From NCBI GenBank assembly GCA_002118135.1, contig BDIU01000245.1, positions 1-64,000 on the forward strand: a stretch of 64,000 nt of DNA. The letters run 5' to 3'. A program made the position numbers and the translations under genes. Origin of the DNA: Trebouxia sp. TZW2008. Its lineage: Eukaryota; Chlorophyta; Trebouxiophyceae; Trebouxiales; Trebouxiaceae. The notes under the pieces were generated by a model that was not told the DNA's origin, made no database searches, and worked only from the letters and a program-made list of their open reading frames with translations. Positions 38,950 to 42,687 of the stretch are shown one piece after another; position 1 is the stretch's first letter; each line of letters begins with the position of its first letter.

Positions 38950-39435
38950 GCACGAGTTGAGACAAAGCTGCTACTGTTACAGAAGCTGCAGCCAAGGCTG
39001 CAAGTTGCCTTGTGACAGGGAGAACGCTGCAAGCAAGTCAAATGCTGCCACCACAAACCCATGCTGGCATTACCGAGGCATGGGCGCAACATAATCTGGA
39101 AAGCAAATGTTTCATCACATAAACCTCTGCAGCACTCAAACAAAGTGGCTACTTTGCTTGCTGTTTGCATGAGCAGAACACATTGTGCACAATAACAATC
39201 GTGACTGAAAGCGTTCAATACTGCAATATGCAGACTGAATGATTGCAGCTTGCAGCACAGAAGCTGCAAGTGCCTCAAAAATTGAACAGAGGCCTAAGCA
39301 TGACACCCAACACACAAAGAAAGCAGCATTTCAGGCTTGCATGTCAGCTGTCTGCTGTTTGAACGCATGTCGTCATGAGCAGCTCAAGTGTGTTTTGGAT
39401 GCCTGCCTCAGTCCTGCTGTCTGACTGTATTGACC
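38950..39435 (-). other. Probable GPX 3' UTR (SECIS expected)
   Basis: Lies 3' of the GPX stop. A TGTAA, the usual green-algal poly(A) signal, occurs on the minus strand near 38975. A selenocysteine-insertion (SECIS) hairpin should lie here. An ATGA at 39373-39376 (minus) with a GA 26 bases further on was the best start found by eye, but the stem does not pair well. Confidence 0.4.
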
Positions 39436-42400
39436 TCAACGATCGTCTGCCAGCAACTTCTCTATCAGTGGAGAGTACTCGGTTGCTGAAGACTTTGGTC
39501 CATACCTGCGATACATCAAGACATACTGTTACATTGCTGCAAAAATGAACTGTGAAGTGCTACTGAGCCTTCTGACCAGTTATATACATCAGTAAGGGTC
39601 TTTGAAACAACATGCACTGGGCATGACAAATGTATGCCAAATGCCGTGCAAAGTATGTTCAGTTGCCTTGTGATGTCAAGCTGGGTGGCTAATGTTGCGA
39701 AGACTGCTTGCTAGCACCTTCCACAGGCAAGGCTGCAAGCTTCAGTGACTGAGCTCCCAGTTACACACGAATCGCATGCAAAGCTGATTCTGGGTTGGCA
39801 AGACTACTTTGGCAAGTGCTGGACACGCTAGAAACTATGCACTGATGGTTCAGAGGCAAGATCTGTGATCTGCTACTGATCACACCACATGAGATATAAG
39901 CTCAAAGCAAAGCATTACCTGCCAAACACAGTTCCGTCCTTCCTCACAAGGAACTTGGCAAAGTTCCAAGAGATGGGACTGGTGTCCCCGCTTGCATCCT
40001 GAACGCCAGCACAAAGATGTCGACCCATCAGTCCAATCTATGCCGTCGGGCATCAAGACAGGAGCTGTTGTGAGAAGAAGCAGCCTGGGGCTCTTGAGAG
40101 CACATGGACAGCAGATTCCCCAGCTACATCCATTGCTGCTTATACCAGATACTGACTTGGTCATCATTACCATGCACAGTAACAATTGTATTGGTGGTTA
40201 GATGACAGTAGCAGCTGTGGGCTCGGGGCAAACTCCTTATGCATATTTCAACAGGGTCAAAGGTTGCCTGTTGCTTTAGCATCTGCTACATCTGCTACAT
40301 CTAAACTAGACATGATTGTAAAACCATATACATGGTTATATAGTACGTGCCTTGTTGAAAGGCTCACAGATTGTTTCTGTGGAAGGACATCTGGAAGGAA
40401 TCAAGCAGTGGAGTCACCTTGAGGAAGACGTAGACTGGCGATGACTGGGAGCCATTCACATCTATCTTGTCCATCAGCAATCCTTTGTAGCCCTTGTTCT
40501 GTGCAAATTGCTTGATAACATCATTGCTGCCAGGCTCTTGGTTCAGAAACTGATTACTGCAAGACAACAAATAGGATTAGCTCAAAGGCAGCAAATTTGG
40601 TGCAGGTATAATATCATGTTAGACCCTTGTTCTGTACAAACTGCTTGACATCAGCATGGCTGCCAGGCTCTTGGTTCAGAAACTGATTACTGCAACACAA
40701 CAGACATTCTCATTCAGCGGCAGCAGCAGACAACACAGCTGCTGTGTTGTTCTGGTTATATGGGTTGTGTCAAAACAATGCGTGCCACATTGCACTTCAA
40801 CCAAGGCATCTCAGGTTTCGCAACAGGCTGGTTAAATGCACAGTATACCCAAAAATGCTTACTGCACCATGACATCGGGCGAACAATACAACCATACAGC
40901 AGATGTAGAGCTTGATGTAACGTAAAGGATCAGGATTTCATGTAGATGAGGATTTCATTACGCCAAACACAGCCCATTTCGGATGGCAATGTAGCAAAAT
41001 GAGACATTGAAGGACTCGCTATGCTACACCTGATGCATCACTTTGTAAAGCTGAAATTGCATTGCATGAAAACACATCACATCCAAAGCAGCAGAGCAGC
41101 GCAGGCTCTCACCAGGGGAATGCAACGATAGCAAAATCCTTCCCAGCGAAGGTTTGCTGCAAGGTCGCAAAGTCCTGCATCACAAATCTTGTCTGATGTC
41201 AACTGAACCATGAGAGAAAACTGTGATCTCAGACATTACATCTGGTAAGCCCAGAGCACTAGTACATCTGGAAAGCCCAGAGCGCTATGCAGTATAAGCA
41301 ATGTGCAATGCAAAATCAGCTGTTCTGCAAAGTCGTCTGGGCGCATGCATTGTTGGCAGGATGGCAATGGTCTACTTGCAATGCAGCCAGAGAAGCGGTT
41401 TAGACGGATTGTGTAGTCAACTGTTTGGTCTGCTGAAGATGGGTGAAGCAGCACATGCACACCAAGTTGGCACATGGTCACTCAAGCATATTCTTTGCCA
41501 TAGTCAGCCAAGCATGCAAAGCACGCACAGCATGCGACACTGCAGCAGGTGAACCTTGTAATTAGCTTCTGTCCGGCCTCACTTGGACGCCACATTCACA
41601 ACCAGTACCACCTGAAAATCACAAGTGAGACAACCTCAGATAGACAGCCTCAGACTCACACAAACGCCCTTAGGCGCTTGCAGTTGATGTCACAGATCGT
41701 AGATAGTTATCCTCAGATGCCATTGTGAACGTTGTGGGCTGTCGTCATACAAACATAACATGTCAGAAGCTGGAGTCGATGTGTCCAGGCATCCTTCTTG
41801 TCTATCACCAACAGTCACATACTGCTTGAAGCTCTGTCAATATCACTATGCTGCTCTGCAGCTTGCTGCTGCATGGAATGAACAGCAATGCAGTTGCTGC
41901 AGCAGCAGCACAGCACAGTCATTGTACATGCATTGAATGCATTGCACATGAACTCGACAGCAAGGTACTTCATATGCTGGACTATGCAGCTGAATGCATA
42001 AGGCTTTGTCAGGAGGTCACCTTGCCCTCAAAATCAGCAAAGTTCACTTCATTACCATCAATGTCTTTGGCTTTTAGCTGATGGAAGTTAGTATACTGGC
42101 TTTTGGTCTCAGAAGAGTCACCCAGAAATGCCAACGGCATCTGTACATTTGGACTTGCGCTGCAAGTCGCATTTTGACTTTGCAGATTGGTCTGCGAAAA
42201 ACCGAATGAATTTAGTGTCTGCACTCTGCAAGTGGGTTTTGCTGATGCCCGGCTTCACACACATGCACTGATAGGCACTCATCCAGTGATTGAAATGAAG
42301 ATAGCATACAACATATGGCAGGTGCTCAACAAGGCTTACTTGCAAAGCGTCTTCGACTGCAAGGCTGGGACCTGTAAACATGAAGGGCTTCTCACTCAAA

Positions 42401-42687
42401 AGCTGGGAATTTGAAGGCCAGGAGTGATGCAGTACTCAGCAATGTCAGCGCTTCTAACCTGCTCCGAAAAGGCTAGCAGCCAGTAGCGTGGCCGCACTGA
42501 CCGTGGCTGCGGCGCGCTGCTGAAGTGAGGTAGGTTCGCTGGCGGACTGCAAAGCCGACGTGCACATTCCGCGACGTGTTGAGCGCTTCTGTGGCAGAGC
42601 GCGGCAGCTAGGCCGCCCGACACTGGAGGGACGCGCAGAACTGGGCAGCTGTACGGGGTGGCACGTCTTTGTGAGCCCCTGCGACAT
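39436..42687 (-). CDS. GPX: Glutathione peroxidase, selenocysteine-containing, organelle-targeted
   Basis: Eight exons in consistent phase: 42687-42459, 42371-42340, 42095-42021, 41611-41555, 41174-41113, 40556-40418, 39998-39919, 39505-39436; 247 residues. The catalytic block reads VNVASK-TGA-GRTEANYK; TGA stands at the catalytic Cys/Sec position (residue 123), so it is read as selenocysteine. Other tetrad parts are present: FPCNQF with QEPG (Gln158) and SWNFAKF (Trp209, Asn210). Like animal GPX4, it lacks the oligomerisation loop and the plant resolving Cys. The first 87 residues form an Arg/Ser-rich transit peptide followed by a hydrophobic AATLLAASLFGAGPSLA segment with an SLA-type cleavage site, suggesting the thylakoid lumen. 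The stop is also TGA. The enzyme reduces lipid and hydrogen peroxides with glutathione or thioredoxin. The start ATG is the first in frame after an upstream TGA. Confidence 0.93.
40620..40694 (-). repeat. Decayed copy of GPX exon 6 start
   Basis: Copies the 5' half of exon 6 with its acceptor, sharing 'gccaggctcttggttcagaa' with 40530-40549. Reads NQFLNQEPGSHADVKQFVQN, so it is only lightly diverged but has no donor at the matching place. Confidence 0.85.
41579..41581 (-). other. In-frame TGA, selenocysteine codon
   Basis: TGA within exon 4 of the GPX gene, flanked by NVASK and GRTEANYK and by good splice sites (CAG|GTGGTA before, AAG|GTTCAC after). It aligns with the Sec/Cys of all glutathione peroxidases. 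Confidence 0.92.

What the first reader, a model, noticed from the sequence alone, without database searches (positions are those of the whole stretch)
41555..41611. Selenocysteine at the active site of a glutathione peroxidase
The exon reads VVLVVNVASK-TGA-GRTEANYK between good splice sites. Continuing through the TGA keeps frame with eight exons, giving a 247-residue GPX with all other catalytic motifs intact. Selenoprotein GPX is known in Chlamydomonas and animals. Automatic annotation would probably truncate this gene or skip the exon. The true stop is also TGA, so the two UGAs must be told apart by position relative to the SECIS.
Basis: partly seen in the sequence, partly recalled or inferred. 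Interest (0 to 1): 0.85.

Follow-up and report, generated by a model that had tools for sequence, protein, structure and literature searches.

The report
Plastid selenocysteine glutathione peroxidase in alga
A green-alga gene for a glutathione peroxidase (an enzyme that removes peroxides) very probably uses the stop codon TGA to insert selenocysteine at its active site; this is a known kind of gene that databases often annotate wrongly, and its front end hints that this one may be sent into the photosynthetic membrane compartment.

Summary
Minus-strand exon 41611-41555 reads VVLVVNVASK-TGA-GRTEANYK; the TGA (41581-41579) sits where GPX enzymes carry the catalytic Cys/Sec. Eight exons with GT-AG introns give 279 codons (not 247). 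(1) A second gene in the genome (contig C124) has the same TGA and, from that exon on, the same exon lengths; sequence after the TGA is under purifying selection (dN 0.17-0.19, dS 1.1-1.8). (2) A SECIS-like element begins 59 nt after the stop, where C124 has a strong one; ATGA, AAACAGC and TGA are kept, 10 of 12 helix pairs form, three changed on both sides. It is the weaker of the two and was found only by comparison. (3) The genome encodes tRNA-Sec(UCA), eEFSec, SBP2, SecS, and PSTK- and SPS-like exons. (4) Six named green-algal relatives that I opened all lack the active-site residue, as expected of annotation artefacts. Sec-GPX is known in green algae, so this is a new member of a known kind. 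The most novel reading is an N-terminus resembling a thylakoid-lumen targeting signal, shared with a Trebouxia relative. It is untested.

The parts
42459..42687 (-). Exon 1: start codon, S/R-rich transit-peptide-like N-terminus and hydrophobic stretch (residues 60-74, about 42510-42466)
   Evidence: gene model; hydropathy; start codon inferred
42340..42371 (-). Exon 2, codes (G)PSLAVEDALQ with a possible thylakoid-processing site after ...SLA
   Evidence: site inferred from a recalled rule
42021..42191 (-). Exon 3, start of the GPX fold (...YTNFHQLKAKDIDGNEVNFADFEGK)
41555..41611 (-). Exon 4, VVLVVNVASK-U-GRTEANYK
41579..41581 (-). In-frame TGA read as selenocysteine, residue 155 of 279
   Evidence: same codon in the C124 paralogue
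41113..41174 (-). Exon 5, DFATLQQTFAGKDFAIVAFP(C)
40418..40556 (-). Exon 6, (C)NQFLNQEPG...VYVFLK
39919..39998 (-). Exon 7, DASGDTSPISWNFAKFLVRKDGTVFG(R)
39436..39505 (-). Exon 8, C-terminus and TGA stop (39438-39436)
39330..39376 (-). SECIS-like element (ATGA quartet, helix II, apical AAA, mini-stem, TGA), 59 nt after the stop
   Evidence: same place as the element at L023 3860 in C124
40624..40702 (-). Partial duplicate of the intron 5 end plus the 5' half of exon 6; probably not used

Best explanation
The locus is a nuclear gene of a green alga close to Trebouxia. It encodes a GPX4-like glutathione peroxidase whose catalytic residue is selenocysteine. The TGA at 41581-41579 is decoded by tRNA-Sec(UCA), delivered by eEFSec and recruited by SBP2 bound to a SECIS in the 3' UTR (39376-39330); the TGA at 39438-39436 ends translation. 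The selenol is expected to reduce hydroperoxides with the Gln/Trp/Asn partners of the FPCNQF and WNF motifs. The resolving Cys of plant GPXs is absent, so an external thiol, probably glutathione, would regenerate it. The N-terminus looks plastid-targeting, possibly to the thylakoid lumen. Shown here: gene structure, conserved TGA, SECIS-like element, machinery genes, selection. Inferred: actual Sec insertion, enzyme activity, localisation.
For: Gene model with seven GT-AG introns. TGA aligned with the catalytic Cys of PDB chain 2p5q (glutathione peroxidase 5) and of designed GPX4-type proteins (the three alignments shown). Paralogue on C124 with the same TGA and the same exon lengths from the Sec exon on. 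104 of 136 translated codon positions identical between the two, counting the Sec TGA and the stop; 61 of 104 nucleotide differences at third positions; dN/dS well below 1, also downstream of the TGA alone. A strong SECIS-like element in C124 and its counterpart in the window. tRNA-Sec; eEFSec, best PDB match at 1.3e-32; SBP2, the only PDB match at 1.5e-13; SecS 1e-98; PSTK-like; SPS-like. Named algal relatives lack the residue.
Against: The window SECIS is imperfect: two of 12 helix II pairs are mismatches, unconstrained folding of 100 nt prefers another structure at -26.6 kcal/mol, my first two scans did not list it, and Rfam SECIS_1 does not detect it. Rfam also misses the strong C124 element, so that test is weak here. 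No RNA or protein data. The hits of the selB, PSTK and SPS models are below the curated full-length cut-offs, exon by exon, and the SBP2 match covers 61 residues only. In C124 the exon before the Sec exon would need a GC donor in my join, and its first exons were not modelled.
Confidence: 0.95

Rival explanations
1. Sequencing or assembly error: the codon is really TGC/TGT, so this is an ordinary Cys GPX.
For: Two other GPX genes of this genome have TGC and TGT there.
Against: A separate Sec-type locus has the same TGA; a SECIS-like element follows both; the named relatives that I opened lack exactly this residue.
Confidence: 0.02
2. Pseudogene: a nonsense mutation in a decaying GPX copy.
For: A partial duplicate of exon 6 lies in the gene; the SECIS-like element is weaker than the paralogue's.
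Against: Splice sites and the frame are intact; dN 0.17-0.19 against dS 1.1-1.8 downstream of the TGA; the same TGA in the paralogue.
Confidence: 0.02
3. The exon is skipped or trimmed in the real mRNA, giving a GPX-like protein without active site, as several deposited models imply.
For: Six named green-algal models do this, in several different ways.
Against: The shapes of the gap differ between models, as expected of gene predictors avoiding a stop. Two unnamed records (P0011, P0012) carry Trp there and run on past the usual end, as expected if TGA was translated as Trp (inference). The exon is conserved between the two genes here.
Confidence: 0.02
4. Plain UGA readthrough with another amino acid, without Sec.
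For: The window SECIS has two mismatches.
Against: Sec machinery genes in the genome and TGA at the position where Sec is known in this family (family knowledge).
Confidence: 0.01

Closest known systems
Chlamydomonas reinhardtii seleno-GPX (GPX1/CrGPxA, GPX2/CrGPxB)
   Same: Green-algal, two Sec-type genes beside a Cys-type GPX, organelle-targeted by prediction (passages of PMC3095285; passages of PMC9404770, which gives mitochondria as the suggested site of one)
   Different: No lumen-type signal is reported for them in the passages read; that paper finds CrGPx gene structures hardly conserved, whereas the two Sec genes here share exon lengths from the Sec exon on
Trebouxia sp. C0005 protein P0001 (WJX79_002809)
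   Same: Apparent orthologue: best hit, 57% identity over 97% of the query; similar N-terminal hydrophobic block
   Different: Deposited model lacks VNVASKUGRTEANYK, probably an annotation artefact
Mammalian GPX4
   Same: Catalytic residue context NVASxUG, FPCNQF, WNF, no plant-type resolving Cys (matches; shown alignments are with designed GPX4-type chains)
   Different: Plastid-type N-terminus; only the domain of about 140 residues is shared
Plant plastid GPX (AtGPX1/AtGPX7)
   Same: Plastid GPX-fold peroxidases
   Different: Cys-type; GPx described as stromal (passages of PMC3095285)

Membership tests
GPX family (Pfam PF00255) | Profile match above cut-off | tested here: met
   120.2 bits, cut-off 27, with Cys written at the TGA
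GPX family (Pfam PF00255) | Catalytic partners Gln (FPCNQF) and Trp-Asn (WNF) | tested here: met
   Q186, W241, N242 at least 90% conserved in a 10-row alignment; their role is recalled
Eukaryotic selenoprotein | In-frame TGA aligned with Sec/Cys of homologues | tested here: met
Eukaryotic selenoprotein | SECIS in the 3' UTR | tested here: met
   Published pattern NTGA-(10-13)-AA-(15-39)-GA (PMC2375036 passages) satisfied with 12 and 25 nt; upper stem -6.8 kcal/mol with the structure imposed (threshold -3.7); whole element, core imposed, -12.4 with 10 or 14 nt flanks (just misses -12.6), -17.3 and -21.3 with 18 and 22 nt. Free folding prefers another structure; Rfam SECIS_1 negative. Own folding, not SECISearch3
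Eukaryotic selenoprotein | Sec machinery in the genome | tested here: met
   tRNA-Sec, eEFSec, SBP2, SecS clear; PSTK and SPS by exon matches below full-length cut-offs
Eukaryotic selenoprotein | Sec present in the protein | not testable with these tools
   no protein data
Plant-type thioredoxin-dependent GPX | Resolving Cys in the region aligned to VCTRFK of GPX5 (2p5q) | tested here: not met
   window has FAQNKGYK there; that this Cys is the resolving one is recalled
Thylakoid-lumen protein | Bipartite transit peptide | tested here: inconclusive
   hydrophobic 15-mer mean hydropathy 1.75 in window and P0001, followed by AGPS(L/F)A; no predictor available

The most novel reading that the evidence does not exclude
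This is a selenoprotein imported into the thylakoid lumen. The N-terminus has an S/R-rich stretch poor in acids, then a hydrophobic core and an AGPS(L/F)A block; core and block (residues 60-81) are 13 of 22 identical to the Trebouxia C0005 orthologue, against 12 of 52 in the first 55 residues. A selenol peroxidase next to photosystem II would be a new site for selenium chemistry and would raise the question of its reductant there.
Probability: 0.35. Interest if true: 0.55.

Novelty: new member of a known kind. Interest (0 to 1): 0.3.

Why it matters
It documents two Sec-type GPX genes with nearby SECIS-like elements in a Trebouxia-like genome (lichen-alga type) and shows why databases can hide them: deposited models from Trebouxia, Chlorella and Picochlorum lack the active-site residue. 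If the lumen targeting is real, it would put selenium-based peroxide removal in the photosynthetic lumen, where PMC3095285 places PrxQ rather than GPX.

Tried and rejected
Rfam SECIS_1 on the window, the 3' region, the own genome and the C124 3' region gave nothing; since it also misses the strong C124 element it was not taken as evidence of absence. My first two SECIS scans ranked the C124 element first but did not list the window element among the candidates shown; it was recognised only from the alignment of the two 3' UTRs. The shuffle test (7 of 20000 shuffles for the window, 2 of 20000 for C124) used criteria set after seeing both elements, so it is descriptive.

The strongest selB-model hit in the genome is C132 (75.9 bits); its sequence reads as eEF1A to me (recalled), so the eEFSec claim rests on C119 (59.2 and 43.2 bits). 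Other selenoprotein families were searched for context: Rdx 0 matches, AhpC-TSA_2 2 matches, Sep15_SelM 1 match; whether any of these is Sec-type was not settled. The SPS N-terminus appears to read RCGGCGGK, i.e. Cys-type, not followed further. A region search for more relatives with the N-terminus returned one short unnamed protein (P0121) without the hydrophobic core. Literature searches for a lumenal selenoprotein or lumenal GPX (8 of 8 listed, 12 of 119 listed, 3 of 4 listed) showed none in the listings; I read passages of four of the listed papers only (PMC3095285, PMC11092101, PMC8462822, PMC4802093).

Full report
What is there. The window is part (contig C236) of a 68.5 Mb, 527-contig genome. 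On the minus strand, eight exons from 42687 to 39436 join with seven GT-AG introns into 279 codons plus stop; the fourth exon (41611-41555) reads VVLVVNVASK-TGA-GRTEANYK, with the TGA at 41581-41579 as residue 155. With Cys written at the TGA the product matches Pfam GSHPx at 120.2 bits, and in the three PDB alignments shown the residue pairs with the catalytic Cys of 2p5q (glutathione peroxidase 5) and of two designed GPX4-type proteins.

Organism. The best protein hit is Trebouxia sp. C0005 (P0001, 57% identity over 97% of the query; 63% in the alignment; 101 of 116 after the Sec exon), so the genome is a green alga near Trebouxia; the name itself is not known.

Four GPX genes. The genome searches found GPX matches on four contigs: C219 and C416 carry Cys codons TGC and TGT, while the window and C124 carry TGA. 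From the Sec exon on, the C124 gene has the same exon lengths (57, 62, 139, 80, 70). The exon before it would need a GC donor in my join, and the start of C124 was not modelled. Over the shared part the two agree at 104 of 136 translated codon positions (counting the Sec TGA and the stop), and nucleotide differences fall 23, 20 and 61 on codon positions 1, 2 and 3; dN is 0.15-0.18 and dS 1.0-2.7 by three methods. For the 124 codons after the TGA alone, dN is 0.17-0.19 and dS 1.1-1.8 by two methods. Sequence past the TGA is thus maintained as protein, which argues against a dead gene; the second locus argues against a sequencing error.

SECIS. In C124 a scan of the 3' UTR finds ATGA, a 12-pair helix with one bulge, an apical AA, and TGA, starting 64 nt after the stop. 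Aligning the two 3' UTRs shows the same element in the window at 39376-39330, 59 nt after the stop; the scans alone had not listed it. Identity in the element is 29 of 46 aligned positions, against 25 of 59 between stop and element and 73 of 174 after it; a 48-position block further downstream reaches 30 of 48, so identity alone is not decisive. ATGA, AAACAGC and TGA are kept. In one register 10 of 12 window pairs and 12 of 12 C124 pairs are canonical; three pairs changed on both sides, three on one side, four are unchanged and two are broken in the window; sliding the partner by 1-3 bases leaves at most 5 (window) and 6 (C124) pairs. The window element also forms a CAGC/GCTG mini-stem. The published search pattern and energy limits (PMC2375036, passages) are met for spacing and upper stem (-6.8 kcal/mol); with the core imposed, the whole element reaches -12.4 with 10 or 14 nt flanks, just short of the -12.6 limit, and -17.3 or -21.3 with 18 or 22 nt. 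Against it: unconstrained folding of 100 nt prefers another structure at -26.6, and Rfam SECIS_1 detects neither element. The window SECIS is therefore probable and the weaker of the two.

Machinery. tRNA-Sec with anticodon UCA scores 76.6 bits against a gathering score of 47. The C119 exon matches eEFSec best among PDB chains (1.3e-32); the selB model gives it 59.2 bits, below the full-length cut-off, and scores an eEF1A-like exon on C132 higher. The C404 exon (61 residues, running into a TGA at its end, probably past the splice site) matches only SBP2 (1.5e-13). SecS matches O-phosphoseryl-tRNA(Sec) selenium transferase chains at 1e-98. A PSTK-like exon (59.8 bits) and five SPS-like exons (best 62 bits) are below the curated full-length cut-offs, as expected for single exons. 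A survey states that all sequenced Trebouxiophyceae, Ulvophyceae and Chlorophyceae but one encode the full machinery (PMC6627142, results section read in part).

Relatives in databases. Of 120 listed hits I opened nine. All six of these that are named green algae (Trebouxia C0004, C0005, C0006 twice, Chlorella variabilis, Picochlorum SENEW3) lack the catalytic residue: five lose most or all of NVASxxGxTEANY and one has a different join. Two unnamed records have Trp at the position and continue past the usual C-terminus, as expected if every TGA was translated as Trp (inference), and one has Cys. The DNA of these relatives was not available, so TGA there is inferred.

Mechanism. Sec155, Gln186 and Trp241-Asn242 give the GPX active site (numbers; roles recalled). 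The resolving Cys of plant GPXs is replaced (FAQNKGYK against VCTRFK in 2p5q; its role is recalled), so the enzyme should work like GPX4 with an external thiol. This is inference from family knowledge.

Localisation. The first 55 residues hold 1 acidic, 8 Lys/Arg and 16 Ser/Thr residues (P0001: 3, 9 and 9); a hydrophobic 15-mer (residues 60-74, mean hydropathy 1.75) follows, then AGPSLA. P0001 has a hydrophobic 15-mer at 59-73 (1.75) and AGPSFA. Identity to P0001 is 12 of 52 over residues 1-55, 13 of 22 over 60-81 and 7 of 23 over 88-117. This resembles a bipartite thylakoid-lumen signal with a processing site after Ala (rule recalled), but rests on two sequences. Plastid Sec-GPX is already suggested for Chlamydomonas (PMC3095285, passages), but the same paper calls plastid GPx stromal and PrxQ lumenal. 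My searches listed no lumenal selenoprotein; I read passages of four of the listed papers.

What is known. Sec-type GPX is among the four most widely distributed selenoproteins in 36 algal genomes, and Trebouxia gelatinosa was included in that survey of 137 algae (PMC7539508, one section and passages). One paper in the library holds both Trebouxia and selenoprotein. The gene is therefore a new member of a known kind.

Other. A 79-bp partial duplicate of the intron 5 end and exon 6 start lies at 40702-40624. Short local duplications are common here: 32 direct-repeat families of at least 45 nt in the window, 20 of them shown.

Noticed in passing
40702-40624 (minus strand): 79-bp near-identical duplicate of the end of intron 5 and the first half of exon 6, acceptor included; it runs into a stop if spliced in.
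   Followed up: partly
window 1-64000: 32 families of direct repeats of at least 45 nt within 2 kb (20 shown), many about 100-250 nt tandem duplications; local duplication looks common in this genome.
   Followed up: no
L041 (G000:C195:141500-149000), minus strand, upstream of the SPS exon at 147869: A degenerate extra copy of the SPS exon (VGASILSRVLQRL..., with a stop) lies upstream in the presumed intron, like the exon duplicate in the GPX gene.
   Followed up: no
about 38890-38580 (minus strand): A near-repeated segment (ccatctagctagcaatgctttt...atcccatacgcgcactgtaaca) occurs twice about 240 nt apart downstream of the gene, possibly the ends of a small mobile element (read by eye).
   Followed up: no
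P0011 and P0012 (database records): Unnamed records with Trp at the Sec position that run past the normal end: probably selenoprotein transcripts translated with TGA as Trp.
   Followed up: partly
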